Positions 19,830-32,981 of a DNA stretch of 64,000 nt are shown here, in pieces (the stretch's first letter is position 1; each line of letters opens with the position of its first letter). The notes beneath the pieces were generated by a model. The model ran no database searches, was not told the origin of the DNA, and worked only from the letters and a program-made list of their open reading frames with translations. This stretch comes from Lentzea sp. NEAU-D7 (GTDB lineage: Bacteria > Actinomycetota > Actinomycetes > Mycobacteriales > Pseudonocardiaceae): assembly GCF_026242055.1 (NCBI RefSeq), contig NZ_JAPJDL010000001.1:620001-684000 (forward strand). Direction: 5' to 3'. The translations under genes were made by a program, and so were the position numbers.

Positions 19830-20897
19830 TCAGGCCTCGACGAGCAGGTCGAGCAGCTTCTGCGGGGGCTCGTCGCCGAACAGGCTCTGGACCATCTCCT
19901 CGGAGTCCTCCGCGGTGCGGGCGGCACGCTCGAACATCGCCTCCTCGTACTCGGCGAGGGCGGTCTCCACGTCCTTGGTGGCCAGGGCCAGGGCGAGCTC
20001 GGCACCGTCCAGCATGGCCAGGTTGGCGCCCTCGCCGTTGGGCGCCATGAGATGCGCGGCGTCGCCGACCAGGGTCACTCCCGGCACCCGTTCCCAGCGG
20101 TGCTCCGCCGGCAGGGCGTAGTGCGGGCGGAACACCGGCTCCGTGTCGGACTCGGTGATGAGCTTCGTGATCTCCGGCGCCCAGCCCTCGAACTCCCCCG
20201 CGATCCGGCCGAGGTCGTCGAACCACTCCAGCGGGCGGCTCAACTCCACGTAGGCGTGCAGCGTGTCGCCGCTCTCCCGGTGCGCGAAGATCCCCTTGCC
20301 CTGTCCGGGCGCGAACATCGAGCCGCCACCGACCGCCCTCGCGACGTCCGGGTGCCGGGTGTCGGCGTCGTGGAGGTAGGTCTCGACGAACGACATGCCG
20401 GTGTACTCCGGCTTCGCGTCGGTGACCAACGTCCGCACCCGCGACCACGCGCCGTCAGCACCCACCAGCACTTCAGCGGTGAGGGTGCCGCCGTCGGCGA
20501 ACGTCACGGTCCTGCCCTCGACACCGGTCACCTTGCGGCCCCAGCGGACGGTGCCCGCCGGCAGCGAGTCGAGCAGCATCTGCCGCAGGTCGGCGCGCTG
20601 CACCTCGGGACGGCCGCCCGTGCCGTCGTCGCCCTTCTCGAACAGCACGGTGCCGTCGGAGTCCAGCACCCGCATGGCCTGGCGGCCGGGCAGCACCAGG
20701 CGGTGGAACTCGTCCATCAGACCCGCGGCCTCGACGACGATCTGCCCGTTGTAGTCGTGGATGTCGAGCATGCCGCCCTGCGTCCGCGCCGACGGTGACT
20801 CCTCGGCCTCGTAGACGGTGGACGGAATGCCGTTGACGTGCAGCACGCGGGCGAGCGTGAGGCCACCGAGTCCGGCACCGATGATCGTGACATGCAT
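19830..20897 (-). CDS. FAD-dependent monooxygenase (TetX-like)
   Basis: A 355-aa class A flavoprotein monooxygenase. It has the FAD dinucleotide motif IIGAGLGGLTLARVL at the N-terminus, the DG motif GADGAWSRVR, and the GD motif LVGDAAHLMAPNGEGANLAMLDG near residue 285. The size and the MAPNGEGANLAM wording are those of TetX/tetracycline-destructase-like proteins, which also include many uncharacterised actinomycete oxidases. The ATG at 20897 is preceded by GGGGAG, and an 8-bp inverted repeat at 20916-20940 lies just upstream. The XRE-cupin gene follows. It may inactivate an aromatic or tetracycline-like compound; resistance is not proven. Confidence 0.85.
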   Translation of the reverse strand: MHVTIIGAGLGGLTLARVLHVNGIPSTVYEAEESPSARTQGGMLDIHDYNGQIVVEAAGLMDEFHRLVLPGRQAMRVLDSDGTVLFEKGDDGTGGRPEVQRADLRQMLLDSLPAGTVRWGRKVTGVEGRTVTFADGGTLTAEVLVGADGAWSRVRTLVTDAKPEYTGMSFVETYLHDADTRHPDVARAVGGGSMFAPGQGKGIFAHRESGDTLHAYVELSRPLEWFDDLGRIAGEFEGWAPEITKLITESDTEPVFRPHYALPAEHRWERVPGVTLVGDAAHLMAPNGEGANLAMLDGAELALALATKDVETALAEYEEAMFERAARTAEDSEEMVQSLFGDEPPQKLLDLLVEA

Positions 20898-20915
20898 GTG
20901 GAGCTCCCCTGGAGA

Positions 20916-20940
20916 TCGTGCCGCCTCCCTGACGGCACGA
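20916..20940. promoter_or_regulatory. Perfect 8-bp inverted repeat before the TetX-like gene
   Basis: TCGTGCCG (20916-20923) and CGGCACGA (20933-20940) with a 9-base spacer, 18 bases upstream of the start codon. Likely operator of the XRE-cupin regulator encoded downstream, although a 5'-UTR hairpin is also possible. Confidence 0.5.
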
Positions 20941-21051
20941 CCAGGTTCACCCGGCCCGCTGGCACTCTCCGCACACCTCGCTGACAGCGGCTGGCAGCCC
21001 CTGTCACGCACCAGGAACATCTCTTGATCTGCGCGCAGTAGCCTGGCCGGC

Positions 21052-21648
21052 GTGAGCTACCGCTACGAGATCACCCAGGCGGTCGTGCGGCAGGGCATCA
21101 TCGCGATCGTTCGCACCGCCGACGCCTCCTCCGCCGTGCAGGCGGCCGTTCCGCTGCTGGACGCCGGGATCACGTCCCTCGAGCTGCCGCTGACGAATCC
21201 CGGTGCGCTGGAGGCGATCCGGCAGCTCCGCGCGGACCACCCGTCAGCGGTGATCGGTGCCGGGTCCGTGCTCGACGAGGCTTCCGCCGTCGCCGCGGTG
21301 CGCGCCGGGGCACAGTTCCTGGTGGCCCCCAACCTGAACTTGTCGGTGATCCGAGCCGGGCACCGGTACGGGGCCGCTGTTCTGCCGGGGGCAGGGTCGG
21401 TGTCCGAGGTGGTGCAGGCTCTTGAAGCCGGGGCGGACGCGGTGAAGGTGTTCCCGGCGCCCACACCTCAGTGGGTCAGGGACGTGCTCGCCGTGCTGCC
21501 TCACGCGCCGCTCGTGCCCACCGGAGGCGTTGCGCCCGCCGACGTTCCGGCGTGGCTGGAGGCAGGAGCGGTGGCGTGCGGGATCGGTTCGGCCCTCGGC
21601 CGCACGCCGCGTGAGGAGATCAGGTCCCTGATCGATCTGATCTCCTGA
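21052..21648 (+). CDS. eda: KDPG/KHG-type aldolase
   Basis: A 198-aa class I aldolase of the 2-keto-3-deoxy-6-phosphogluconate/4-hydroxy-2-oxoglutarate family, which cleaves 2-keto-3-deoxy sugar acids to pyruvate and an aldehyde. Key residues are visible: IIAIVR near residue 20, the glutamate in SLELPLTNP, and the Schiff-base lysine in DAVKVFPA. The length is normal. The GTG at 21052 has only a weak ribosome site. No KDPG dehydratase, glucose-6-phosphate dehydrogenase or sugar-acid kinase is adjacent, so it may serve hexuronate or other sugar-acid breakdown and not a full Entner-Doudoroff unit. Confidence 0.9.
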   Translation: MSYRYEITQAVVRQGIIAIVRTADASSAVQAAVPLLDAGITSLELPLTNPGALEAIRQLRADHPSAVIGAGSVLDEASAVAAVRAGAQFLVAPNLNLSVIRAGHRYGAAVLPGAGSVSEVVQALEAGADAVKVFPAPTPQWVRDVLAVLPHAPLVPTGGVAPADVPAWLEAGAVACGIGSALGRTPREEIRSLIDLIS

Positions 21649-21723
21649 GCGAGCAGCGGCTTCGGGACGCGTTCGTCGAGAGCGCTTAATCGATACGACA
21701 CCTTCGGGTCACCCAGGCGGGTT

Positions 21724-21738
21724 GTGAAAGACTTTCAC
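21724..21738. promoter_or_regulatory. Palindrome GTGAAAG-A-CTTTCAC upstream of the sphingomyelinase
   Basis: Perfect 7-bp arms around one central base, 20 bases upstream of the sphingomyelinase start. No regulator gene is adjacent, so the cognate protein is encoded elsewhere. Confidence 0.45.
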
Positions 21739-21758
21739 GTCCGCCACCATCGGGCCTC

Positions 21759-22682
21759 ATGCGCCTGATCACGCTCGCCGCCGCCGTCGCGCTGACGATC
21801 TCGGCCGCCCCCGCGGTCGCCGCTCCGGCCGCCCCCAGGATCGCCACCTACAACGTCTTCATGCTGTCGCGGAACCTCTACCCGAACTGGGGCCAGGTCG
21901 CCCGCGCCGACCTGATCGACAGCACCGGTGTGCTGAACGGGCAGGACGTCGTCGTGCTCAACGAGGTCTTCGACAACACCGCCTCGGACCGGCTGCTGGC
22001 GAACCTGCGCGACACCTACCCGCACCAGACGCCGGTGCTCGGCCGCAGCAAGGCCGGGTGGGACGTGACGAGCGGGAGGTACAGCGACTCGACGCCGGAG
22101 GACGGCGGTGTCGCGGTGCTGAGCCGCTGGCCGATCACCACGCGGATCCAGCACGTCTACCGGGACGGCTGCGGCGCGGACTGGTTCTCCAACAAGGGGT
22201 TCGCGTACGTGCGGATCGAGGCGCCGACCGGGCCGCTGCACGTCGTCGGGACGCACATGCAGGCCGAGGACTCGGCCTGCACCAGCGCGCCGGGCGGGTA
22301 CCGGGCGAAGCAGCGGGCCGAGATCAGGGCGTTCCTGACGGCGCGGAACATCCCCGCGGCCGAGCCCGTGTACGTGGCGGGCGACCTGAACGTGGTCATG
22401 GCGAGCGACGAGTACCCGCGGATGGTGTCGGAACTGGGCGCGCGGACGCCCGAGGTGGGTGGGCACCCGTTCTCTTGGGACTGCGCGGACAACAGCGTCT
22501 GCCGCGACCAGTACGGGCCGGAGTACGCGTCCGAGCACCTCGACTACGTGCTGACCGTCCAGGGGCCGTTGCTGCGCAACGAGACGCGGCGCGCGAAGAG
22601 TCCTGAGTGGTCGATCTGGTCGTGGGGCCGCAAGTACACCTTCAACGACCTGTCCGACCACTACCCCGTCTTCGCTAGCTGA
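21759..22682 (+). CDS. Secreted sphingomyelin phosphodiesterase-like enzyme
   Basis: A 307-aa exported hydrolase of the endonuclease/exonuclease/phosphatase fold, sphingomyelinase C branch. A Sec signal peptide of about 23 residues ends near AVAAPAAP. The metal site and catalytic residues are visible: NVFM near the mature N-terminus, the glutamate in VVLNEVFD, the mid-protein HMQAEDSAC, VAGDLNV, and the terminal SDHYPVF histidine. Cysteines in the mature part could form disulfides outside the cell. It should cleave sphingomyelin or other phospholipids for phosphate or carbon. The 3' end overlaps the convergent small gene by 8 bases. Confidence 0.88.
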   Translation: MRLITLAAAVALTISAAPAVAAPAAPRIATYNVFMLSRNLYPNWGQVARADLIDSTGVLNGQDVVVLNEVFDNTASDRLLANLRDTYPHQTPVLGRSKAGWDVTSGRYSDSTPEDGGVAVLSRWPITTRIQHVYRDGCGADWFSNKGFAYVRIEAPTGPLHVVGTHMQAEDSACTSAPGGYRAKQRAEIRAFLTARNIPAAEPVYVAGDLNVVMASDEYPRMVSELGARTPEVGGHPFSWDCADNSVCRDQYGPEYASEHLDYVLTVQGPLLRNETRRAKSPEWSIWSWGRKYTFNDLSDHYPVFAS

Positions 22683-22986
22683 GCACGGGCGCGACGGTGA
22701 GGCCGAGCTCGGGCATGCCCAGCCAGTCCAGGGTGGCGCCCGACTCGGTCAGCCTGATCCGCACGGAGTGGACGCTGAGCAGCAGGGCCTGCAGCGAGTC
22801 CACCCCGTACGCGGCGCTGACGACCTCGTCGCCGAGGCCCACGATCTGATGTGGACACTCCCAGTCGCCGTTGCCGCTCAACGGGTCCGGGCGCGGGGTA
22901 CCGAACCTGACCACCACCTCGAAGGGTGATCCGTCCGGTGCCCTGCCCTCGATCTGCCGTTCCGCGACGACGACTCCCAGGTCCAT
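22675..22986 (-). CDS. Conserved hypothetical protein (DUF6968-like)
   Basis: A 103-aa protein without signal peptide or membrane helix. It contains FEVVVRFGTPRPDP, then GNGDWECPHQIVG, and resembles small actinobacterial proteins grouped as DUF6968. It begins with ATG at 22986, only five bases after the stop of the DUF6493-like gene, so it is probably the last gene of the SWIM/DUF6493 operon. No catalytic motif is recognisable. Confidence 0.65.
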   Translation of the reverse strand: MDLGVVVAERQIEGRAPDGSPFEVVVRFGTPRPDPLSGNGDWECPHQIVGLGDEVVSAAYGVDSLQALLLSVHSVRIRLTESGATLDWLGMPELGLTVAPVLS

Positions 22987-22991
22987 GCGGT

Positions 22992-25487
22992 TCAGCCTAG
23001 TGCGTTCACCAGCCTCCGGGCCTGAACGGCCGCCTTGCTGGAACCCTTGCGGGCCGCCACCTCCGCGAGACCGCCGACGGTGCCGCCCGGCTCGAGGCGC
23101 TGGGCCAGGTCGACCGCGAGCTCGACCAGGTCCGCGACCCTGTTGTGCGACCACGCCTTCGGCAGCGCGGTCGTCAGCAGGTCCCAGATCGGAGCTGCGG
23201 CACCGGAGCGTGCCGCATCGCGCAGGCACGGCACCACGCGGTTCAGCGCGAGGTCGCCGCGTTCCAGCAGCAGGCCGATCACCTCGCCCAGTGCCCTGCC
23301 GTCGAGCTGGCCGCGGGCCGCGAGGATCAGCAGCGCGTCGACGGCGTGGGCGCGACCGACAGTCCCCGCGGCGCCGAGCCCGTAGGCGAGCGCCAGGTGC
23401 GTGGCGGCGCCGATCGGGCCGTCCGCCTCGGCGAGCGCGGGCAGCACCGGGCCGTCGTCGACGTTCGACTCCCGGCCGTTCGCGAGGATCGGCACGAGGT
23501 ACGCGGCGACGACCTCCCGTTGCGCGGGCAGGACGGCGGGCCAGCACAGGAGCATGGCGCCCCAGCCGTTGTAGCTGAACCAGTACCGCTCCGGATCGGC
23601 CAGTCCGGGTGTGAGCGTCACGAGCAGCCGTTTCTCCGGGGGCGGCGGGGTCCCGTAGTAGGAGTGCTGCTGGCGCGTGCGTTCGACCAGCTCGGACGCC
23701 GGATCGCTCCGCTCCTCCAGCCACTCGCGCAGCAACTTGCCCGCGTTGCTCGTCAGCGGCGCGAAGTCCTCGGGGCGGGTGTCGCGCGGCAGCCGCTCGA
23801 AGGCCTGCCGGAGGTCACGCGGCCACGGCTCCCAGTTCTCCGCCTCGGCCTTGGCCAGGCGTTCGAGCAGCGTCACGGCGTCGAGCAGGCCGTTCGTCGC
23901 GGTCGGCGTCGACACCAGCGCCGGTCGCGGCGAGTTGACGATGCCCTTGGCGATCTCGTTGAGCCGCTTGGCGAGCTGCAGGCTCACCGAGCCCACCTCC
24001 GCCCGCTTGAGCTGCCTCATCCACGTCCTGGCGGCTTCCAGCACCGACTCGATCGGGCCGAGCGCCACGGCGGTCTCGGACACGGCGCCGATGATCGCGA
24101 CGAGCACCGACCAGCAGTCGCGCCGGGCGTGGTCGGGGTAGGTCTCATAGGCACCCTGGTTCAGCACCCACGGGTACTTCTCGTAGACCGGCGCGAACGC
24201 CCGCGCGATCGCCTCCTTGTCCTGCCAGGCGAAGCGGACGACGGCCTCGACGATCCGTTCCGCGGTCACCAGGTCGACCTGCCCCGCGTTGCGGCCGAAC
24301 AGCCCGCGCACCTCGCCGGTCAGCTCGTCCAGCGTGGCGATCGGGTCCGGCCACGGGCGCGGCGCGAACGGTGCGAGCTCGACCGCCTCCTCCGCGACCG
24401 TCTCGGCGCCGAGCTGGGCGGCGAGATCGGGCGGCAGCTGTTCGGCCAGCGCCAGCAGTTCCGTCCGCGTGCTGTCGCCGATCTTCGCCTGGTGCTTGGT
24501 GATCAGCTTGACGGCCTGGCCGCGCAGGTCGTCCGACTCGTGCGCGAACAGCTCCGCGACCGTGAGCACGACGTCGTCTGGAGTGGATTTCGCGTGCTTG
24601 CCGAGCCACGTGAGCTGGGTGCGGACGAGCTTCTTCTCGGTGCGGCCGAAGACCCACCGGCTCGCGTCGGCGAGCAGGTCGAAGTCGAGCCTTTCCGCCT
24701 CGTCCAGCGTCTTCAGCCGGGCCTGCGCGAGGGTGGCGACCGACGAGCGGGAGTCGGGCAGCATCGCGACGTAGTCCCGTGCGTGCTCGGCGGTCTCGTC
24801 CAGCGTCACGTCGAGAATCCTGTGCAGCGCGAGGAAACCCTCCATCTCCGAGGCGCTGCCGCCCTGCTGGAGGCGGGCCAGGCAGCCGTCGAGGAGCACC
24901 CGCCGGTCTGCCCGCTCGCACAGGAACTGCGGCCACTGCGGGATGTTCGCGAAGATCGCCCCACCGCCGACGACCTCCAGCATGCGCGGGACCAGCGCGT
25001 CAAAGGACGGACGCCAGTCCGCGTGACCGTCGAAGGCCAGGAAGTGCAGCAGGAACCCGTCGGTGTCCGGTGGGTTGTCGCCGCAGAACTCCAGCATGAT
25101 CCTCATCAGGTCGGGCCGGCTCGGCTCCCGGGCGGGAATCCTGGCGGCGACCCGTGCGACCAGGTCCGGCAGCCACGCGGGGTCGCGGTGCCTCAGCACG
25201 TCCAAGGCCTCGGAGATGCCGTTGTCCTGGCTCATGCGGTGCCACCAGATCTGGTAGCGCACCAGCCACGGCGTGAGTGTGGAGGCGTTCGGCAGCAACC
25301 CGATTCCCGCGATCTGCAACCCCGCGTGGTGGTCCCAGTTCCGGCCGGACGCCCGCCGCTTCTTCTCGTACGCGACGAGGTCGGCGGCGCGCTCCTTGCG
25401 TTCCTCGGGCGTGAGGCTCTTGAGCACCTCGCCGAGCGCGAGCAGCTGGTCCGATTCGATCAGAGCCCGGATCCTGTCGAAGCTCAC
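22992..25487 (-). CDS. DUF6493-like large protein, copy A
   Basis: An 831-aa cytoplasmic protein of unknown function. It is rich in amphipathic helices spaced like HEAT/ARM repeats, with no signal peptide or membrane helix. Marker stretches include WLPDLVARVAARIPAR, VFGRTEKKLVRTQLTWLGKH and LAYGLGAAGTVGRAHAVDAL. It is paralogous along its whole length to the neighbour at 25484-27955. I assign it to the DUF6493 group found beside SWIM zinc-finger proteins in actinobacteria, from memory of that gene order. The GTG at 25487 overlaps the stop of the upstream paralogue (GTGA) and follows GGGAGGGAAGG. The long open frame upstream of this start is only a shadow of the neighbour. Confidence 0.8.
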   Translation of the reverse strand: MSFDRIRALIESDQLLALGEVLKSLTPEERKERAADLVAYEKKRRASGRNWDHHAGLQIAGIGLLPNASTLTPWLVRYQIWWHRMSQDNGISEALDVLRHRDPAWLPDLVARVAARIPAREPSRPDLMRIMLEFCGDNPPDTDGFLLHFLAFDGHADWRPSFDALVPRMLEVVGGGAIFANIPQWPQFLCERADRRVLLDGCLARLQQGGSASEMEGFLALHRILDVTLDETAEHARDYVAMLPDSRSSVATLAQARLKTLDEAERLDFDLLADASRWVFGRTEKKLVRTQLTWLGKHAKSTPDDVVLTVAELFAHESDDLRGQAVKLITKHQAKIGDSTRTELLALAEQLPPDLAAQLGAETVAEEAVELAPFAPRPWPDPIATLDELTGEVRGLFGRNAGQVDLVTAERIVEAVVRFAWQDKEAIARAFAPVYEKYPWVLNQGAYETYPDHARRDCWSVLVAIIGAVSETAVALGPIESVLEAARTWMRQLKRAEVGSVSLQLAKRLNEIAKGIVNSPRPALVSTPTATNGLLDAVTLLERLAKAEAENWEPWPRDLRQAFERLPRDTRPEDFAPLTSNAGKLLREWLEERSDPASELVERTRQQHSYYGTPPPPEKRLLVTLTPGLADPERYWFSYNGWGAMLLCWPAVLPAQREVVAAYLVPILANGRESNVDDGPVLPALAEADGPIGAATHLALAYGLGAAGTVGRAHAVDALLILAARGQLDGRALGEVIGLLLERGDLALNRVVPCLRDAARSGAAAPIWDLLTTALPKAWSHNRVADLVELAVDLAQRLEPGGTVGGLAEVAARKGSSKAAVQARRLVNALG

Positions 25488-27955
25488 GCCTTCCCTCCCA
25501 GTGCGCTCATCAGTCTCTTCGCCTGCACGACCGCCTTGCTCGACCCCTTGCGGGCGGCGGCCTCGGCCAGTCCGCCGACGGTGCCGCCCGGCTGCAGCAG
25601 CTGGGCCAGTTCGACCGCGAGCTCGATCACGTCCGCCGCCCGGTTGTGGGTCCACAGCCGGGGAACGGCCGCGGTCAGGGCGTCCCAGACCTGCCGTGCG
25701 GCACCGGAGCGGGCCGCGTCGCGCAGGCAGGGCACGACCCGGTTCATCACGAGGTCGCCGCGGTCGAGCAGCCGTCCCAGGAAGTCGCCCAGCGTCCTGC
25801 CGTCGAGCTGGTCGCGTGCGGCGAGGACCAGCACCGCGTCGACGGCGTGGGCGCGGTTGACGGTCAGTTCGGCACCCAATCCGTAGGAGAGGGCGAGGTG
25901 CAGAGCCGGACCCGCTGGACCGTGGGCTTCGGCGAGCATCGGCAGGAGCGGGCCGTCGCCACCCTTCGAGGCCGTGCGCGCCCGCAGGTGCGGAATGAGA
26001 TGGGCGGCGACGACCTCCCGCTGGGCGGGCAGCAGCGAGGGCCACCACTCCTTCATCGAGCCCCAGTCGTCGTGCTGGCGCAGGAACTGCTCCGGCTCCT
26101 CCAAGCCGGGGGTGACGGTCGCGTAGAGGCCGGTCTCGCCCATGTAGGAGTCGTACCGCCAAGGGTGCCGGTAGGTGCGTTCCGCGATGGCGACCTCGGG
26201 GTCGGTCCTGTTCGCGAGCCAGTCGCGCACCTTCGCGGCCGCCTTGCTGGTCAACGATGCGAACACCGCGGGGTCCGTGTCGAGCGGCAGGCGCTGGAAG
26301 GCCTGCCGCAGGTCGCGCTGCCACGGTTCCCAGCCCTCGGCCTCGGCCCTGGCCAGGCGGTCGGCCAGCACCGCAGGCTCGATCAGGCCGGACATGTCGG
26401 TGGGCGTGGAGACCAGGGCCGGCTTCGGCAGGTGGACGAGGCCTCTCCCGATCTCGTACAGCCGCTTGGCGAGTTCGTCCCCGACCGCCCCGATGCCGGG
26501 CTCCGGCTTCCGGTTGCGGGCGAAGTCCAGTTCAGTGGTCACCCCGTGCTTCAGCGGGCGCGGCTTGTCGGGAGCGTCGAGGACCGCTCCGATGAGCTCG
26601 GAACGCGGGGTGTGCTGGGAGTGGTCGAACCACGGGGAGTTCTCGGAGAACGGCCGGATCGCCTCGCCGAGCGCTTCCCTGTCCTGCCAGGCGAACCGGA
26701 CCACCGCCTCGATGATGCGTTCCGCCGTGGACGGTTCGACGTTGCTCGAGTTGCGGCCGAACGCGCTGAGCAGTTCCCCGGTGAGTTCGTCGAGGGTGGC
26801 GATCGGGCTCGGGAACGGCCTGGGCTCGAACGCGGCCAGTTCCGGGGCTTGTTCCCGGGACGTGGTGCCGCCGAGCCGTGCCGCCAGGTCGCCCGGCAGC
26901 TGCTCGGCCGAGGCGCGGATTTGGGCCTGCGTCGTGTCACCGGTGTTGCCGAGGTGCTTCGCGATCAGCGTGACGGCCTGGCCGCGCAGGTCGTCCGACT
27001 CGTGCGCAAACAGCTCCGCGGCGGTCAGCACCACGTCGTCCGGGTTCGCCTTGCCGTGCTTGCCGAGCCACGTGAGCTGGGCGCGGACGAGCTTCTTCTC
27101 GGTGCGGCCGAACACCCACCGGCTCGCCTCGCAGAGCAGACCGAAGTCGAGCTTTCCCGCGTCGTCGACTCGCTTGAGCTGGTCCTGGGCCAAGGCGGCC
27201 ACGGTGGAGCGCGAGTCAGACAGCATCGCCAGGTAGTCCCGGACGTGCTCGACGGTTTCCGCGAGCGTGATGGCGATAGCTTCGTGCAGTTCGATGAAAC
27301 CGGCCATCTCCGACTGAGATCCGCCCTGCTGGAGCCGGGCGAGACAGCCGTCGACGAGCACCTGTCTGTTCGCCCGCGTGCGGAGGAACGCCTGCAACGG
27401 CCTCGAGTTCCCGAAGTAGAACCCCGATCCCACGACCTCCAGCAGCCGCGGGAACAGCACGTCGAACCCGGGACGCCACTTCTGGTGGCCCTTGGAGTCC
27501 AGCAGGTGCAGCAGGAATCCGTCGGAGTCCGGCGGGTCCTCCCCGCAGAACTCCAGGATCACCGTGAGCAGGTCCTGCCGGAGCAGTTGGCGTGCCGGCA
27601 TCCGGGAAGCGAGCCTCCCGACGAGGTCCGGCATCCACGTGAGCTCGCGGTGCCGCAGGACGTCGACGAGAACACCGATCCTGTCGTCGTGCTGACGGCC
27701 GTAGTGGTGCAGCGAGATCCGGTAGCGGACCAGCCACGGGGCGAGCGCCGACGCGCTCGGCAGCAGGCCCGCTCCCGCGATCGCCAGCGGCTCGCCGTGC
27801 TGCCAGCGCAGATCACTCGCCCGGTGCGCCTTCTCGTACGCGATCAGGTCCTTCGCGCACTCCTTGCGCTGCTCGGGGGTCAGGTTCTTGAGCGCCTCCC
27901 CCAGCGGGTAGGCGTGCCCCGTCTCGATCACCGCCCGGATCCGGTCGAACGTCAC
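25484..27955 (-). CDS. DUF6493-like large protein, copy B
   Basis: An 823-aa paralogue of copy A with the same N-terminus pattern (FDRIRAVIET against FDRIRALIES), the same central block (VFGRTEKKLVRAQLTWLGKH, then ESDDLRGQAVTLIAKH) and the same end (GGTVGGLAEAAARKGSSKA). The two copies differ most in the middle, around residues 440-520, where copy B carries a shorter and more charged segment. The GTG start at 27955 overlaps the stop of the SWIM gene (GTGA). Helical-repeat architecture suggests a scaffold. A link to the E. coli MolR/Yeh gene group, which also combines large repeat proteins with a SWIM protein, is a contextual analogy only. Confidence 0.8.
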   Translation of the reverse strand: MTFDRIRAVIETGHAYPLGEALKNLTPEQRKECAKDLIAYEKAHRASDLRWQHGEPLAIAGAGLLPSASALAPWLVRYRISLHHYGRQHDDRIGVLVDVLRHRELTWMPDLVGRLASRMPARQLLRQDLLTVILEFCGEDPPDSDGFLLHLLDSKGHQKWRPGFDVLFPRLLEVVGSGFYFGNSRPLQAFLRTRANRQVLVDGCLARLQQGGSQSEMAGFIELHEAIAITLAETVEHVRDYLAMLSDSRSTVAALAQDQLKRVDDAGKLDFGLLCEASRWVFGRTEKKLVRAQLTWLGKHGKANPDDVVLTAAELFAHESDDLRGQAVTLIAKHLGNTGDTTQAQIRASAEQLPGDLAARLGGTTSREQAPELAAFEPRPFPSPIATLDELTGELLSAFGRNSSNVEPSTAERIIEAVVRFAWQDREALGEAIRPFSENSPWFDHSQHTPRSELIGAVLDAPDKPRPLKHGVTTELDFARNRKPEPGIGAVGDELAKRLYEIGRGLVHLPKPALVSTPTDMSGLIEPAVLADRLARAEAEGWEPWQRDLRQAFQRLPLDTDPAVFASLTSKAAAKVRDWLANRTDPEVAIAERTYRHPWRYDSYMGETGLYATVTPGLEEPEQFLRQHDDWGSMKEWWPSLLPAQREVVAAHLIPHLRARTASKGGDGPLLPMLAEAHGPAGPALHLALSYGLGAELTVNRAHAVDAVLVLAARDQLDGRTLGDFLGRLLDRGDLVMNRVVPCLRDAARSGAARQVWDALTAAVPRLWTHNRAADVIELAVELAQLLQPGGTVGGLAEAAARKGSSKAVVQAKRLMSALGGKA

Positions 27956-29232
27956 GCCCGTCCCCTGACCATGTCCGCGGCCAGCACGTGCTTGCACTTG
28001 CCGCGGCCGCCGCGGTACTCGGCCCACCACTGACAGGTGCACGCCTCGCCGTTGACGCGGTACGAGCCGACGACCGCCGTGTCGCCGTCCCAGCTGACGG
28101 CGTTCTGCGCGACGAGCGCCCTGGCGTTGCGCAGCCTGGGGTTCATGGCCTCGACGTCGATGCCGCCGTAGGGCAGTTCGCGGTGGAAGTACGACGCCTC
28201 GGCGAGGTCGTAGCCCACCCGGCCGGCCGTGCCCAGCTGCGCGAGCGCGTCCCCGACCCTGGCCGGCGTGAGTCCGGAGCGGTCGGCCAGGTCGGCGACG
28301 TCCACGCGGGGTTCGAAGTCGAGCAGGGCGCCGACCAGCTCGGCGTCGGTGTCGGCGTCTCCCGCCGCGAGTCCGTCGAGGACGGCGCCCTCGCCGGACA
28401 GGCCTCGGGTCACCTCGGGCGACAGGACGAGCGTCAGGCGTTGCGCGCCGAGGTCCACCTCCCAGCCGCTCGCGACGGGCTTGCCGTCGGCCGGAGGGCC
28501 GTAAAGCCGGACCGCCTTCGCGAAGCGCAGCAACGGGATCAAGGTCTCCAGGCGGTTCGGGCCCGCCAGGCACACGGCGTTGGCCGAGGCCGATCCGCTG
28601 AGCCGCAACGACTTCCCGGACGGCACCGCCCACACCGCCGCGCGACCCTTGGGCAGCGTCTTGAGGAACCGCTGCGCGTCCGCCGCCGAGAGCTCGGCCT
28701 TCAGGTCGAACTTCGAGGTGAGGACCTGGGTCTCGGCGAAGCCCCGCAACCAGCGCGGCGGTAGCGGGACCTTCTTCTCGACGACCGCGCCGTCGAGCGT
28801 GCCGACCTCGACCTGGTCGGGCCCGACCGTGAGGTGCAGCGGGTCGCCCTTGGTCACGCGGGCGAGCGCGCGGCGCAGCGGCTCGTTGACGTCGACGTTC
28901 GTGGTGCCGCGGTCGTGCACCTCGCCGTCGAGGGCGTCACCCAGCACGTCCAGGCGCGCGTAGACGCCGCAGCAGCCGGAGAAGGACTCGAAGCGCAGCC
29001 GGTCGCCGTTGCAGGTGACGACCGGGTCCCGCAGGCGCTCCGTGGTGGGCTGGAAGTACCGGGTGCCGGCGACCTTGGCGATCGCGAGCAACGCGGTGGC
29101 GGCCTGCTGCGAGTCGGCGAGGAACCCGGTGAAGAAGCGCGGGTTCGGCGCCCGGCCGCCGGAGGTCTGCAGTCCGAGGGCGCGCCGCGTCTCGTCCAGC
29201 CGGGAGTCGGCCACGTAGGCGTACGAGTGCAT
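27952..29232 (-). CDS. SWIM zinc-finger protein
   Basis: A 426-aa protein whose C-terminus holds a SWIM motif, C398-x-C400 ... C413-x-H415 (EACTCQWW, then GKCKHVLAA), expected to bind zinc and to contact DNA or protein. The N-terminal 300 residues are a beta-rich domain without a recognised enzyme signature, and a segment around 300-345 (VDVADLADRSGLTPARVGDAL) looks like a winged helix. It is the first gene of the operon and overlaps the DUF6493-like copy B (GTGA). In other bacteria SWIM proteins travel with MoxR ATPases and VWA proteins; here neither is present, and two large repeat proteins take that place. Confidence 0.87.
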   Translation of the reverse strand: MHSYAYVADSRLDETRRALGLQTSGGRAPNPRFFTGFLADSQQAATALLAIAKVAGTRYFQPTTERLRDPVVTCNGDRLRFESFSGCCGVYARLDVLGDALDGEVHDRGTTNVDVNEPLRRALARVTKGDPLHLTVGPDQVEVGTLDGAVVEKKVPLPPRWLRGFAETQVLTSKFDLKAELSAADAQRFLKTLPKGRAAVWAVPSGKSLRLSGSASANAVCLAGPNRLETLIPLLRFAKAVRLYGPPADGKPVASGWEVDLGAQRLTLVLSPEVTRGLSGEGAVLDGLAAGDADTDAELVGALLDFEPRVDVADLADRSGLTPARVGDALAQLGTAGRVGYDLAEASYFHRELPYGGIDVEAMNPRLRNARALVAQNAVSWDGDTAVVGSYRVNGEACTCQWWAEYRGGRGKCKHVLAADMVRGRA

Positions 29233-29276
29233 CGCGCCACTCTAGGGAACAGACGTTCGACTCGGCACCCGAATGA

Positions 29277-30587
29277 TCAAACGTAGCGGCGCAGCAGGTC
29301 CTCCTCTGTCTCCCTGCGCACGATCGGCCTCGCGACCCCGTCCTTCACGGCGATGACCGGCGGACGGCAGACCTGGTTGTAGTTCGAAGCCAGGGCGTGG
29401 TGGTAGGCGCCCGTCGCGGGGACGGCGAGCAGGTCTCCGGCGTGCACGTCGGCCGGGAGGAGCACGTCCTCGGCGAGCACGTCGCCTGCTTCGCAGTGCC
29501 TGCCGACGACGGTGACCGGCTTGGGTTTTCCGCCGCGGCCCACGAGCCGGACGGCGTATTTGGCCCCGTACAAGGCGGGACGCGGGTTGTCGCTCATGCC
29601 GCCGTCCACGGCCACGAACGTGCGGACCGACTCCTTGACCGCGCACACCCGGTACAGGGTCACGCCGGCGTTCGCGACGATCGAACGACCGGGTTCGACG
29701 AGCAGGCGCGGGGGTGGCACGCGGTGCAGCGCGCACTCGTAGTTGAGGGCGCCCCGGACGCGGTGGGCGAGCCCCGCCAGGTCGAAGTCCGCGTCGCCCG
29801 GCAGGTACGGCGCGCAGAAGCCGCCACCGAGGTCGAGCTGCTCGATCCTGGTGCCGCAGGACGCGATCAGGCCGACCATCCGCCGCACGGCCTCCTCGTA
29901 GCTCGCCACGTGCCTGATCTGCGAGCCGAGGTGGCAGTGCAGGCCCACGAGTTTGAGCGACGGCTGCTCGACCACCCGCAGGACGGCCTCCAGTGCGGCG
30001 CCGGAAGCCAGTGAGAAGCCGAACTTCTGGTCCTCGACACCGGTCGCGATCTTGGCGTGGGTGTGGGCGTCGATGCCGGGCGTCACCCGGATCATGACCT
30101 CCTGGCCGTGGGTCGCCAGGGCACCGAGCTGGGCGATCTCGTCGAACGAGTCGACGACGATCCTGGAGACGCCGTGCTCCAGTGCCGCCTTGAGGTCCTC
30201 GGCGGTCTTCACGTTGCCGTGCATGATGATGCGCGTCGCCGGGAACCCGGCCGCCCTGGCCAGCGCGAGCTCGCCGGCCGAGGACACGTCCAGGGACAGG
30301 CCCTCCTGCGCCATCCAGCGGTAGACCTCGGGGCAGGGCAACGACTTCCCCGCGAACACGACCTCGGCCTCGGGCAGCGCGGCGCGGAAGGACCTCGCCC
30401 TGGTGCGGACCGTCTGTTCGTCCAGGACCTGGCACGGGGTGCCGAAGCGGGCCGCCAGCTGCGTGGCGGGGACTCCACCGATGACGAGGTCCTGGCCGGC
30501 AACCTGAGTGCCGTCCGGCCAGAGACCGTCTTCCAGCACCGGTTCGGTGGAACATCCGGTGCTGGGCAACAACTCCGCGAGTGTCAT
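29277..30587 (-). CDS. lysA: Diaminopimelate decarboxylase-like fold III PLP enzyme
   Basis: A 436-aa PLP decarboxylase. The Schiff-base lysine is K81 in VFAGKSLPCPEVYRW, followed by HGNVKT, GLHCHLGSQI, LDLGGGFCAPY and the VEPGRSIV phosphate-binding motif, then VDGGMSDNPRPALYG, as in diaminopimelate and related decarboxylases. In place of the common YASKA the lysine motif reads FAGKS, which is seen in a second actinomycete clade. It is the only amino-acid gene in this area, so it could be an accessory lysA copy or act on another diamino acid. The ATG is at 30587. Confidence 0.85.
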   Translation of the reverse strand: MTLAELLPSTGCSTEPVLEDGLWPDGTQVAGQDLVIGGVPATQLAARFGTPCQVLDEQTVRTRARSFRAALPEAEVVFAGKSLPCPEVYRWMAQEGLSLDVSSAGELALARAAGFPATRIIMHGNVKTAEDLKAALEHGVSRIVVDSFDEIAQLGALATHGQEVMIRVTPGIDAHTHAKIATGVEDQKFGFSLASGAALEAVLRVVEQPSLKLVGLHCHLGSQIRHVASYEEAVRRMVGLIASCGTRIEQLDLGGGFCAPYLPGDADFDLAGLAHRVRGALNYECALHRVPPPRLLVEPGRSIVANAGVTLYRVCAVKESVRTFVAVDGGMSDNPRPALYGAKYAVRLVGRGGKPKPVTVVGRHCEAGDVLAEDVLLPADVHAGDLLAVPATGAYHHALASNYNQVCRPPVIAVKDGVARPIVRRETEEDLLRRYV

Positions 30588-30697
30588 GCGTCCAGCACAC
30601 GCCTGCCGCGGGCCGGTGCCCAGATCCCGGACGGGACCCTGACACGGGCGGGCTCCGCCTTGACGCGATCCTGACGACCGCGGTGGCGGGGACCACA

Positions 30698-32188
30698 TCA
30701 GTGCGCGCAGCACCCCGTCGGCGTGGCCGGAGCCTCGACCGGTTCCTGTGCTGCGACCTCGATCTCGCGGAGGACGCGCGCGCGGTCGGCCGGACCCAGG
30801 TAGCGGCCCCGGCTGACGACGGCGTGGATGCGACCGACGTTCGTGATGTCCCGCAACGGGTCCCCGTCCAGCACGACCAGGTCCGCCTGCTTGCCCGGCG
30901 TGACCGTGCCCGACTCGTGCTCGCGGCCGACGCAGCGCGCGGCGTCCCGAGTGGCGGCCTGCAGGGCCTGGGCCGGGCTGAGGCCCGCCTGGACCAGCAG
31001 CGCCAGTTCGTCGTGCAGGGAGAAGCCGGGGAAGACGTAGGCGAAGCCCGCGTCGGTGCCCGCGACGACGCCCACGCCCGCCTCGTGCATCTGGCGGAGC
31101 AGGCGCATGCGGGCGTCGCCGAACCTCCGCAGCTCCGCGACCTCCTCGGGAGTGCGGATGGGGCGGCCGGCCATGATCTGCTGCCACTGCGCGCGCAGGC
31201 CGACCGGGATGTACCGCATCCGTTCGAGGGCTACCGGGTCGTTCGTGATGGTCTCGGGCGAGCGGGACATGTTCCGCTCGACGAAGAGGGTCGGCGACTG
31301 CCATGTGCCTTGTCGGGCCATGGTGGCGAACAGGTGGCGTGCGCGGGCCGGTGAGTGGGTGGCGACGGCCGCGCGTTCGATCCGGCCCGCGTGCCGGCCC
31401 CACCAGTTCGGGTCGGCCGGGTCGTCGGGCATGGCGCGCAACCGGGCGTAGAGCGCGTCGGCGTCGTCCGATGTGGACGTGAACAGGTTGTAGAGGTGCT
31501 CGTGGGTGTGCTGTGCGAGCGCGTCCTGCACCGGCACGCGGGCGGGAACGTGACCGGCGAACGGGATCCGCAGCCTGCGGGCCTCGTCGGCGATGGCGGC
31601 GTGGCACTCCGGTGAGAGGAACGAGTAGACCTTGACGAAGTCCGCTCCCCCGTCCTTGGCCCTGCGCACGGCGGCACGGGCTTCCGCCGGGGTGCGGACG
31701 ACGTCCGAACCGGGCCAGATGGAACCGGGGCCGTCGACGATCGCGCTCGCGATCACCATGCGGGGGCCGAGGATCTCGCCGGTCTCGATGCGACGGCGGG
31801 TGCCGTGGGTCTCGGGCTGGCCCCACATCTCACGAATGCCCGTGACGCCTTGGACGACGTGCAACGGTGCGACGGTGTTCTCGTAGAACGTGGCGTGCGT
31901 GTGCAGGTCCCACAGACCGGGGATCACGTACTTCCCGGCCACGTCGACCACCCGCACGCCGCGGGGGACGTCGCGGTGGCGCCCGGCGGCCAGGATCCGG
32001 TCGCCGGCCAGCACCACCGTCGCGTCGCGGACGGGCGGGCGGCCGGTGCCGTCGATGAGCGTCGCCCCGCGCAGCACGGTCACGCCGGTCGCAGCCTCCG
32101 CGGGCCGCCCCACGGCACTCAGCGCGACCGCTCCGAGTGCCCCTTTCCCCAGCCAGGACAGCACGTCCCGGCGCGCCGGTTCCCCCAC
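30698..32188 (-). CDS. Tat-exported amidohydrolase
   Basis: A 496-aa metal-dependent hydrolase of the amidohydrolase superfamily (imidazolonepropionase/prolidase-like branch). A twin-arginine signal is present (RRDVLSWLGKGALGAVALSA), so the protein is folded before export. Metal ligands are visible: LHTH after IPGLWD, a probable carbamylated lysine in FVKVYSF, the histidine in FAGHVPA, and the aspartate in VVAGTDAG. The protein ends in GCCAH. The GTG start is at 32188. It lies downstream of kdpE behind a set of inverted repeats, probably with its own promoter. The substrate may be a peptide or N-acyl amino acid. Confidence 0.87.
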   Translation of the reverse strand: MGEPARRDVLSWLGKGALGAVALSAVGRPAEAATGVTVLRGATLIDGTGRPPVRDATVVLAGDRILAAGRHRDVPRGVRVVDVAGKYVIPGLWDLHTHATFYENTVAPLHVVQGVTGIREMWGQPETHGTRRRIETGEILGPRMVIASAIVDGPGSIWPGSDVVRTPAEARAAVRRAKDGGADFVKVYSFLSPECHAAIADEARRLRIPFAGHVPARVPVQDALAQHTHEHLYNLFTSTSDDADALYARLRAMPDDPADPNWWGRHAGRIERAAVATHSPARARHLFATMARQGTWQSPTLFVERNMSRSPETITNDPVALERMRYIPVGLRAQWQQIMAGRPIRTPEEVAELRRFGDARMRLLRQMHEAGVGVVAGTDAGFAYVFPGFSLHDELALLVQAGLSPAQALQAATRDAARCVGREHESGTVTPGKQADLVVLDGDPLRDITNVGRIHAVVSRGRYLGPADRARVLREIEVAAQEPVEAPATPTGCCAH

Positions 32189-32201
32189 CGCTCCACCTTC
32201 C

Positions 32202-32285
32202 CCCGAAGTCCCCTGCCGTCACGCTAGTGACTTCGGGTCCGCGGGGCAGTAGGGCTGACCGGAGGACTCGCGGGCGGGTCCGCCC
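32202..32285. promoter_or_regulatory. Nested inverted repeats between kdpE and the amidohydrolase
   Basis: A 9-bp inverted repeat (CCCGAAGTC at 32202-32210, GACTTCGGG at 32229-32237) encloses a second small dyad GTCAC-GCTA-GTGAC. Closer to kdpE a compact GC hairpin (GGGCG-GGTC-CGCCC, 32272-32285) lies 18 bases past the kdpE stop and could end kdp transcription. The larger repeat lies 14 bases before the amidohydrolase start and could be an operator or a leader fold. Confidence 0.45.
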
Positions 32286-32303
32286 CACCACGCGGTCCCG
32301 CGG

Positions 32304-32981
32304 TCACATCTCGAACCGGTACCCCATGCCGGGCTCGGTGATGAGGTGGCGAGGGCGGGCCGGGTCGTCCTCCAGCTTGCGGCGCAGCTGGGCGAAGTAG
32401 ACGCGCAGGTACTGGGACTCGTTGACGTGCATCGGCCCCCACACCTCCTGCAGCAGCTGCTTCTGCGACACGAGCCGGCCGGGGTTGCGCGCCAGGATCT
32501 CGACCAGGCCCCACTCCGTCGGCGTCAGGTGGACCTCGTGACCGTTGCGCCGCACCTTCTTCACCGCCAGGTCGACGACGAACGACGACGTCTCGACCAC
32601 GGGGTCGCAGTCCTCGCGAGCCGCGTTGCGGCGCACGGCGGCACGCAGCCTGGCCAGCAGCTCGTCCATCCCGAACGGCTTGGTCACGTAGTCGTCGGCG
32701 CCCGCGTCGAGGGCCTCGACCTTGGCCGACGAGTCGGTGCGCGCGGACAGCACGATGATCGGGATGGTGGACCAGCCGCGCAGGCCGGCGATCACGTCCA
32801 CGCCGTCGATGTCGGGCAGGCCGAGGTCGAGCACGACCACGTCCGGCTTGCCCTCGACGGCCACGCCCAGGGCGGATCTGCCGTCGTAGGCCGTCATCAC
32901 GTCGTAGCCGCGTGCGCTGAGGTTGATCCTCAACGCGCGCACGATCTGCGGTTCGTCGTCGACCACCAGCACTGATGTCAT
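32304..32981 (-). CDS. kdpE: KdpE response regulator
   Basis: A 225-aa OmpR-type regulator of the kdp potassium system. The receiver has VVDDEPQ, the phospho-acceptor in VVVLDLGLPDIDG and DDYVTKPFGMDELLAR; the C-terminal winged helix contains LTPTEWGLVEILARNPG and SQYLRVYFAQLRRKLE, closely matching KdpE. The start overlaps the kdpD stop (ATGA). It would activate the kdp promoter upstream of 39749 under potassium limitation. The order kdpFABCDE places it last. Confidence 0.95.
   Translation of the reverse strand: MTSVLVVDDEPQIVRALRINLSARGYDVMTAYDGRSALGVAVEGKPDVVVLDLGLPDIDGVDVIAGLRGWSTIPIIVLSARTDSSAKVEALDAGADDYVTKPFGMDELLARLRAAVRRNAAREDCDPVVETSSFVVDLAVKKVRRNGHEVHLTPTEWGLVEILARNPGRLVSQKQLLQEVWGPMHVNESQYLRVYFAQLRRKLEDDPARPRHLITEPGMGYRFEM

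What the first reader, a model, noticed from the sequence alone, without database searches (positions are those of the whole stretch)
22675..29232. Operon of a SWIM zinc-finger protein with two tandem DUF6493-like paralogues and a small fourth protein
Seen: four same-strand genes with GTGA or near-zero spacing (27952, 25484, 22992, 22675). Copies A and B are paralogous over about 825 residues, with shared blocks such as VFGRTEKKLV and ESDDLRGQAV but a divergent middle. The SWIM motif C398xC400...C413xH415 is complete. Known: SWIM proteins often sit with MoxR/VWA proteins or with large repeat proteins (E. coli yeh/mol group). Here the partner ATPase and VWA genes are missing. Inference: two scaffolds plus a zinc/nucleic-acid-binding subunit may form an uncharacterised complex, with duplication allowing heterodimers. 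This is my best candidate for an undescribed system.
Basis: partly seen in the sequence, partly recalled or inferred. Interest (0 to 1): 0.75.

Follow-up and report, generated by a model that had tools for sequence, protein, structure and literature searches.

The report
Damage-induced DNA clamp and fast-evolving partner
A widespread but apparently unstudied bacterial operon makes a protein whose predicted shape is that of the rings that slide on DNA, plus a large partner that evolves unusually fast, and many of its promoters carry DNA-damage switches, which suggests a damage-triggered guard or repair machine acting on DNA.

Summary
The real unit is a two-gene operon: the SWIM protein and one DUF6493-type protein ("BIG"). 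BIG lies next downstream on the same strand in 108 of 126 distinct SWIM loci, 88 with a 4-bp overlap. In 298 genomes of the order, all 31 with BIG are among the 37 with SWIM. The A/B duplication is a side variant; the small DUF6968 gene looks incidental. New: (1) Residues ~34-270 of the SWIM protein are predicted to have the PCNA/sliding-clamp fold (Foldseek E 3.6e-9; model pLDDT 70), followed by a winged helix and the SWIM finger. (2) It is homologous from clamp region to finger to a type XIII retron SWIM protein (hhalign 99.8%), but without a reverse transcriptase and with a different partner. (3) Promoters carry the actinobacterial damage motif tTGTCRgtg-N8-TAnnnT: at least 11 of 12 positions in 64 of 125 SWIM upstreams against 1 of 1090 control genes; Lentzea itself lacks it and has a LexA-like box instead. 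(4) BIG is less conserved than its neighbours in 30 of 31 disjoint pairs. Best reading: a DNA-damage-inducible clamp-solenoid complex, anti-phage or repair.

The parts
27952..29232 (-). SWIM protein gene (426 aa): predicted sliding-clamp fold + winged helix + SWIM zinc finger; conserved core subunit
28423..29133 (-). predicted PCNA/sliding-clamp fold, residues ~34-270 (four beta-alpha-beta-beta-beta units, my reading of the model)
   Evidence: AlphaFold2 model pLDDT 70.1; Foldseek PDB E 3.6e-9, probability 1.00; viral library
28198..28392 (-). winged-helix region, residues ~281-345
   Evidence: weak, sub-threshold DprA_WH and other HTH matches in Pfam; helices in the model, part of it at low confidence
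27976..28059 (-). SWIM zinc finger, residues 392-419 (C398, C400, C413, H415)
25484..27955 (-). large protein A (823 aa), DUF6493/7824/7825 type, first copy
22992..25487 (-). large protein B (831 aa), DUF6493/7824/7825 type, second copy; predicted nearly all-helical HEAT-like solenoid
   Evidence: (pLDDT 88.9)
29245..29260 (-). LexA-like box TCGAAC-GTCT-GTTCcc upstream of SWIM; TCGAAC and GTTC invariant in 8 of 8 Lentzea loci (window included)
   Evidence: consensus tCGAAC-N4-GNNCGa in PMC9380542 (passage)
29239..29244 (-). -10 element TAGAGT, 6 nt before the SWIM start codon (leaderless-type promoter, inference)
22675..22986 (-). small DUF6968 protein gene; probably a passenger
   Evidence: Pfam E 2.9e-15; clear kin only in L116 and L118

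Best explanation
This is a two-part, DNA-damage-inducible system acting on DNA. When DNA damage (or phage replication) leaves single-stranded DNA, damage regulators switch the operon on: PafBC, judged by motif, in most sampled actinobacterial loci, and LexA, judged by a less certain motif, in Lentzea. The SWIM subunit has a sliding-clamp body and probably forms a ring or partial ring on DNA, with its winged helix and zinc finger adding DNA contact. It brings in the large DUF6493 alpha-solenoid through that protein's conserved parts, while the solenoid's fast-changing stretches recognise variable targets such as phage or other foreign replication proteins. Shown here: the pairing, the promoter motifs, the relation to a type XIII retron SWIM protein, the different rates of evolution, the predicted folds. 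Inferred: actual induction, ring formation, binding between the two proteins, DNA loading, the target and the outcome. I put protection against phages or mobile DNA slightly ahead of pure DNA repair.
For: Pairing: of 126 distinct SWIM loci, 88 have BIG downstream with a 4-bp overlap, 15 within 50 bp, 5 further off; 31 of 31 BIG-bearing genomes also have SWIM, n = 298; G193 has a SWIM gene with an internal stop and no BIG found. Same pair in Diaphorobacter (with two tandem DUF6493 genes) and Asticcacaulis plasmids. Clamp fold: 479 PDB matches at E<=1e-3, the 50 shown all from clamp or clamp-with-loader entries; the named viral matches shown are mostly PCNA or beta clamps. Damage control: 12/12 motif in 38 of 125 distinct SWIM upstreams against 0 of 1090 control genes; >=11 in 64 against 1; >=10 in 86 against 11 (a recount without duplicates). 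In one Streptomyces genome the perfect motif occurs 40 times (backward control 0), among them before recA, a RadA-like gene, dnaX and SWIM; in a second genome 5 times, among them before uvrA and SWIM. Motif consensus: PMC5656591. Rates: in Lentzea BIG dN/dS 0.40-0.63, SWIM 0.06-0.11; BIG below the flank median in 30 of 31 disjoint pairs, Wilcoxon p 1.9e-9. Retron link.
Against: The clamp model is moderate (pLDDT 70; three of five models at 52-56) and no sequence-level match to a clamp was found. The helices that would line a pore are not uniformly basic (mean net charge -0.3, +0.2, +1.1, +2.2). BIG dN/dS stays below 1 overall, so relaxed constraint is possible; for L116 the BIG dS (0.38) is also above that of its flanks (0.10-0.30), so deeper divergence or recombination may add to it. 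In the 136 neighbouring proteins scanned there is no clear defence island, the pair was not found in phage or viral contigs, and flanks are often conserved, so it behaves like a stable accessory operon. The damage motif scores below 10 in 39 of 125 loci, all 7 fetched Lentzea included (7-8 of 12), and the LexA boxes tried were not seen in the three proteobacterial upstreams. Of 20 genes scanned behind perfect motifs only 5 are clearly replication/repair-like. Of 11 separately transcribed or extra BIG genes only 2 reach 10 of 12. Where BIG is convergent with SWIM (genus g4) one of two pairs shows no fast BIG.
Confidence: 0.55

Rival explanations
1. A genome-maintenance complex: the SWIM protein is a specialised repair clamp, like the eukaryotic 9-1-1 ring, and BIG is a repair scaffold, both induced with recA, uvrA, radA and dnaX to deal with lesions or stalled forks; no role against phages.
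For: Shared promoter motif with recA, a RadA-like gene and dnaX in one genome and uvrA in another; the best solenoid matches include FANCI/FANCD2, though only at E about 1e-3 with TM at most 0.21; no clear defence island, none in phage records; flanks often conserved.
Against: Patchy: 37 of 298 genomes of the order, absent from one Lentzea in which the flanking genes lie side by side; very fast evolution of BIG; extra BIG copies; kinship with a retron accessory protein.
Confidence: 0.35
2. A reverse-transcriptase-free relative of type XIII retrons that works as abortive infection: SWIM is a toxic clamp that poisons replication, BIG holds it in check, and damage or phage proteins release it.
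For: SWIM is homologous, clamp region to finger, to the SWIM of a type XIII retron found here in Methylobacterium (WGR_XIII, SWIM_XIII, RT_XIII); adjacent, probably co-expressed genes; fast-evolving partner.
Against: BIG shows no sequence kinship with the retron's WGR/HEAT-ARM protein. Toxicity is unknown. In three loci SWIM and BIG lie apart on opposite strands (L138, L152, L156) and in 9 of 126 distinct loci no BIG was detected in the stretch, which is awkward for a strict toxin-antitoxin pair.
Confidence: 0.25
3. A remnant or variant of the E. coli yehL-yehM-yehP-yehQ (MoxR ATPase, VWA, SWIM) group.
For: Both have a SWIM finger; yehF near the E. coli group has a WGR domain, as the type XIII retron partner has.
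Against: YehQ (614 aa) has its finger at residues 56-88 and no match to SWIM_XIII at E<=0.01; the pair stands without annotated MoxR or VWA partners in the four annotated plasmid loci that hold both genes.
Confidence: 0.05

Closest known systems
Type XIII retron (PADLOC RT_XIII, SWIM_XIII, WGR_XIII/HEAT-ARM_XIII), one locus seen: Methylobacterium bullatum plasmid, L198
   Same: SWIM protein homologous from clamp region to finger (29% over 403 aa; hhalign 99.8%, E 1e-27); large partner joined by a 4-bp overlap
   Different: No reverse transcriptase, only 44 bp upstream of the operon and so no room there for a retron RNA, partner is DUF6493-type and not WGR/HEAT-ARM, gene order mostly SWIM first
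DNA sliding clamps (PCNA, beta clamp, 9-1-1)
   Same: Predicted fold and four-unit topology of residues 34-270
   Different: No detectable sequence similarity, extra winged helix and SWIM finger, operon with a solenoid, damage-type promoter; ring not shown
Pfam DUF6493/DUF7824/DUF7825 proteins
   Same: A and B belong to this family through their relatives
   Different: No function known; here a fast-evolving partner of a clamp-fold SWIM protein
E. coli yehL-M-P-Q group
   Same: Contains a SWIM protein
   Different: Different SWIM layout, MoxR and VWA partners

Membership tests
Type XIII retron | SWIM_XIII protein | tested here: met
   PADLOC E 3.1e-44; hhalign to a retron member 99.8%
Type XIII retron | RT_XIII reverse transcriptase | tested here: not met
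   No RT_XIII in the own genome at E<=1e-60; of 296 genomes of the phylum 2 have one at that level, neither with SWIM in the 19-kb stretch around it
Type XIII retron | WGR_XIII or HEAT-ARM_XIII partner | tested here: not met
   No such PADLOC match for A, B or 29 relatives (only OloA, 2 members, best E 0.044); no profile kinship with the one retron partner seen
Type XIII retron | msr-msd noncoding RNA | tested here: inconclusive
   Only 44 bp upstream of SWIM; no Rfam match in 20000-34000
DNA sliding clamp superfamily | clamp fold | tested here: met
   Predicted model only, moderate confidence
DNA sliding clamp superfamily | sequence-level match to a solved clamp | tested here: not met
   Profile search of PDB sequences up to E 10
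DNA sliding clamp superfamily | closed ring around DNA | not testable with these tools
   no oligomer prediction
DUF6493 family | profile match | tested here: met
   Through relatives aligned end to end (15 of 31 members at E<=0.1; L129 33 bits against a cut-off of 25); A and B themselves below threshold
PafBC-type damage regulon (actinobacteria) | tTGTCRgtg-N8-TAnnnT upstream | tested here: met
   64 of 125 SWIM upstreams >=11/12 against 1 of 1090 controls; not met in the 7 fetched Lentzea loci (7-8 of 12)
LexA regulon (Lentzea) | TCGAAC-N4-GTTCGA box | tested here: inconclusive
   10 of 12 positions, half-sites invariant in 8 loci, but 10 of 12 is also the best score upstream of 2.6% of control genes
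E. coli YehLMPQ (MoxR-VWA-SWIM) group | YehQ-type SWIM protein | tested here: not met
E. coli YehLMPQ (MoxR-VWA-SWIM) group | MoxR ATPase and VWA gene beside it | not tested
   Neighbours were not scanned for MoxR or VWA with Pfam; none is annotated in the plasmid loci

The most novel reading that the evidence does not exclude
A bacterial two-component clamp system: a PCNA-fold SWIM ring, induced by DNA damage, that loads on damaged or foreign replicating DNA and uses interchangeable, rapidly diversifying solenoid partners as its recognition parts; type XIII retrons would be the version in which an RT and its DNA serve as the trigger.
Probability: 0.35. Interest if true: 0.92.

Novelty: new variant of a known kind. 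Interest (0 to 1): 0.8.

Why it matters
It turns a pair of 'zinc finger' and 'DUF' genes found in many soil actinobacteria into a testable DNA-damage or defence system, and it offers a structural clue (a sliding-clamp fold) to the SWIM protein of type XIII retrons. If true, bacteria keep a further sort of clamp besides the replication clamp. The promoters give a ready experiment: add mitomycin C and look. They also suggest that PafBC-type promoters exist in Streptomyces, where an initial motif search in S. venezuelae had suggested that the M. smegmatis motif is not conserved (PMC9380542, passage seen).

Tried and rejected
Rejected: (1) YehQ/MoxR kinship. (2) The window as a full retron: no RT_XIII in the own genome at E<=1e-60, no Rfam match. 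(3) BIG as homologue of the retron's WGR/HEAT-ARM protein: hhalign probability 0.7%, no such PADLOC match. (4) A LexA box as the general control: of 131 SWIM upstreams 12 score 10 of 12, 7 of them Lentzea, which leaves the rest (5 of 124) near the control rate (about 3% of 1154 genes); the PafBC-type motif is the general one. (5) The small DUF6968 protein as a component; it also evolves fast where present (dN/dS 0.58-0.68 in two comparisons). (6) A defence island: of 136 neighbour proteins (4 of the 140 listed were left out) few matched PADLOC models at E<=1e-15; 37 families matched, 25 shown, each in 2-3 proteins, mostly kinase-like PD-T4-6 models and mad3; no far-gene control was run. (7) A motif-based hunt for an RT near the pair gave 12 candidates that looked implausible and were not checked further. 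(8) PDB sequence searches of P0001, P0002 and the SWIM profile: nothing usable. (9) Papers: DUF6493, WHSWIM, retron+type XIII+SWIM and SWIM+MoxR+VWA gave no paper; retron+sliding clamp gave 7 listings, none on this by title; retron/SWIM/winged helix gave 155 papers with two of the terms, 10 listed, one of them looked into; the 'yehQ' and ARM-repeat searches gave nothing of use among the rows shown. PMC5656591, PMC8151990, PMC11804915, PMC9380542, PMC8223512, PMC10568477 and PMC12548924 were seen as passages only. The retron classification paper (Mestre 2020) is not held: 'type XIII' rests on PADLOC model names and recall.

Weak points: gene calling is by my own script. Six genomes were fetched twice (found by identical SWIM sequence); still hold some of these, so the recount is the one to use (105: 39 perfect and 65 at >=11 of 126, against 0 and 1 of 1106). 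The pairs are not independent, so the 31 disjoint pairs are the ones to use; one of them (L134/L138) compares unlike BIG genes and leaves 29 of 30 if dropped. For the separately transcribed BIG genes of L138 and L152 the upstream lies outside the fetched stretch. Related species make all locus counts less independent than the numbers suggest.
Full report
OBSERVATION. The window (from a Lentzea-like genome; SWIM up to 97% identical to named Lentzea) holds four minus-strand genes exactly where reported: SWIM 27952-29232, A 25484-27955, B 22992-25487, small 22675-22986. The zinc-binding residues C398, C400, C413 and H415 are nearly invariant in 32 aligned sequences, the window's included. A and B are 60% identical. 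They belong to the DUF6493/DUF7824/DUF7825 family by way of relatives; their own scores are below threshold.

THE UNIT IS A PAIR. In 298 genomes of the order, 37 have a SWIM match at E<=1e-3 (three of these weak, in genus g55) and 31 have BIG at E<=1e-10; all 31 are among the 37. Of the six SWIM genomes without BIG, three are the weak ones, G076 has a divergent BIG by my own profile, G193 has a SWIM gene with an internal stop and no BIG found in its stretch, and G266 is a distant relative with no BIG found. Of 126 distinct SWIM loci (132 fetched, six genomes twice), BIG follows on the same strand with a 4-bp overlap in 88, within 50 bp or with another short overlap in 15, and further off in 5; 4 are convergent, 1 has BIG upstream, 4 are not adjacent, and 9 show no detected BIG in the stretch. 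In two of those 9 (L104, L109) a 1007- and a 1126-residue gene sits just upstream with a 4-bp overlap, without Pfam or BIG-profile match. The same pair is annotated in Diaphorobacter (with two tandem DUF6493 genes, all overlapping by 4 bp, next to an integrase) and in Asticcacaulis. One Lentzea (G223) lacks both, and there the genes corresponding to window genes W28 and W22 lie next to each other. No confirmed match in phages or viral contigs; 10 of 72,556 plasmid records.

THE DUPLICATION. Among Lentzea, the window, L. cavernae and L. albida have two BIG copies; L. albidocapillata, L. indica, L. kentuckyensis, L. fradiae and G215 have one. First copies group together in the tree; second copies group with the single copy of L. 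albidocapillata. I infer that the duplication arose within the genus and that one copy was later lost in some; gene conversion is not excluded. Extra BIG loci without a second SWIM match occur elsewhere (G189, G236).

CLAMP FOLD. AlphaFold2 on 37 sequences gave a SWIM model with pLDDT 70.1; two of five models are near 70, the other three at 52-56. Foldseek found 479 PDB chains at E<=1e-3. The best is S. tokodaii PCNA (E 3.6e-9, probability 1.00, TM 0.66 by target length), and the 50 shown all come from entries of PCNA, beta clamp or 9-1-1, some with their loader. The named matches shown in the viral library are mostly PCNA or beta clamps. The strand and helix order fits four beta-alpha-beta-beta-beta units (my reading; the topology of PCNA is recalled). 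Against: no sequence-level match, and pore helices not uniformly basic. BIG is predicted with high confidence (pLDDT 88.9) as a nearly all-helical solenoid; its PDB matches (FANCI, karyopherins) are at best E 1.1e-3 with TM at most 0.21 in the rows shown and say only 'HEAT-like'.

RETRON LINK. PADLOC names the SWIM protein SWIM_XIII (E 3.1e-44). A search of plasmids led to Methylobacterium bullatum, where a WGR_XIII protein (1048 aa), a SWIM_XIII protein (554 aa, 4-bp overlap) and an RT_XIII (602 aa) follow each other; this is the only such locus seen, and its RNA was not searched for. The window family aligns to that SWIM over 363 columns, from the clamp region to the finger (hhalign 99.8%, E 1e-27). 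The large partners do not align. RT_XIII at E<=1e-60 occurs in 2 of 296 genomes of the phylum and in neither near SWIM. So the clamp-SWIM protein is shared, while the partner and the RT differ.

DAMAGE PROMOTERS. The published damage motif is tTGTCRgtg-8 nt-TannnT (PMC5656591, introduction passage; similar in PMC8151990). Scored over 12 positions, it is perfect in 38 of 125 distinct SWIM upstreams and 0 of 1090 control genes of the same loci; >=11 in 64 against 1; >=10 in 86 against 11. Of these 86, 38 lie 29-31 bp before the called start (first count). In genome G351 (genus g93, Streptomyces by a shared contig of another member; inference) the perfect motif occurs 40 times, backward control 0, and genes behind it include recA, a RadA-like gene, dnaX, a DEAD helicase and a WGR protein, besides SWIM. 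In G446 it occurs 5 times, including uvrA and SWIM. Pfam was run on 20 of the 23 downstream genes found for 30 sites; 5 of the 20 are clearly replication/repair-like, the rest are various or without family. Lentzea differs: recA has a PafBC-type promoter (TTGTCAGAC-N8-TAGCGT, 10 of 12), but the SWIM promoter scores only 7-8 in 7 of 7 fetched loci and has TCGAAC-N4-GTTC followed by TA, with both half-sites invariant in 8 of 8 loci. The own genome has 13 perfect TCGAAC-N4-GTTCGA sites (control 0), one of them about 250 bp before lexA. The pattern GTCGAAC-N4-GTTC-N2-TAnnnT occurs without mismatch twice in 9.3 Mb: here and before a DprA gene. The S. venezuelae LexA consensus is tCGAAC-N4-GNNCGa (PMC9380542, passage). 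The same paper's statement that the M. smegmatis PafBC motif seems not conserved in S. venezuelae stands against a general PafBC reading in Streptomyces, though the site counts above stand for one.

RATES. Between the window and seven other Lentzea loci, SWIM has dN/dS 0.06-0.11, flanking genes 0.08-0.32, BIG 0.40-0.63, with dS mostly in the same range, but higher than the flanks for L116. In 12 chosen pairs, dN peaks at B residues ~80-200, 436-514 and 595-633, and is lowest at 277-316 and the C-terminus. In 31 disjoint pairs of loci with three or more shared flanking genes, mean identity is SWIM 89.3, flanks 85.7, BIG 66.7; BIG is below the flank median in 30 of 31. The one exception is a convergent pair (L051/L053).

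VERDICT. A real, widespread pair, undescribed within the papers searched. Mechanism: damage-induced clamp-solenoid complex on DNA (0.55), with defence and repair as open outcomes. It is not a retron (RT and partner tests fail), but its clamp-SWIM protein is kin to one.

Noticed in passing
L292:1579-3021 (genome G351): A WGR-domain protein (the domain type of the type XIII retron partner) also has a perfect damage motif upstream; possibly another arm of the same theme.
   Followed up: no
L134 and L138 (Microtetraspora): SWIM 91% and flanks 91-98% identical, but the BIG gene is missing at the SWIM site in L138 and an unlike BIG (36%) lies a few kb away: partner replacement or loss.
   Followed up: partly
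L051, L053, L054, L055 (genus g4): SWIM and a divergent 815-aa BIG overlap tail to tail on opposite strands; in one of the two pairs compared BIG does not evolve fast.
   Followed up: partly
L104:9209-12232 and L109:9122-12502: Large genes (1007 and 1126 aa) upstream of SWIM with a 4-bp overlap and no Pfam or BIG-profile match: perhaps a third kind of partner.
   Followed up: partly
window 21759-22682: Convergent gene for an endonuclease/exonuclease/phosphatase-family protein with an export-like N-terminus at the far end of the operon; not seen between the flanking genes in G223, where the pair is absent too.
   Followed up: partly
Streptomyces promoters (genome G351): 40 perfect PafBC-type motifs including recA and a RadA-like gene, although a published initial search suggested the motif is not conserved in S. 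venezuelae.
   Followed up: partly
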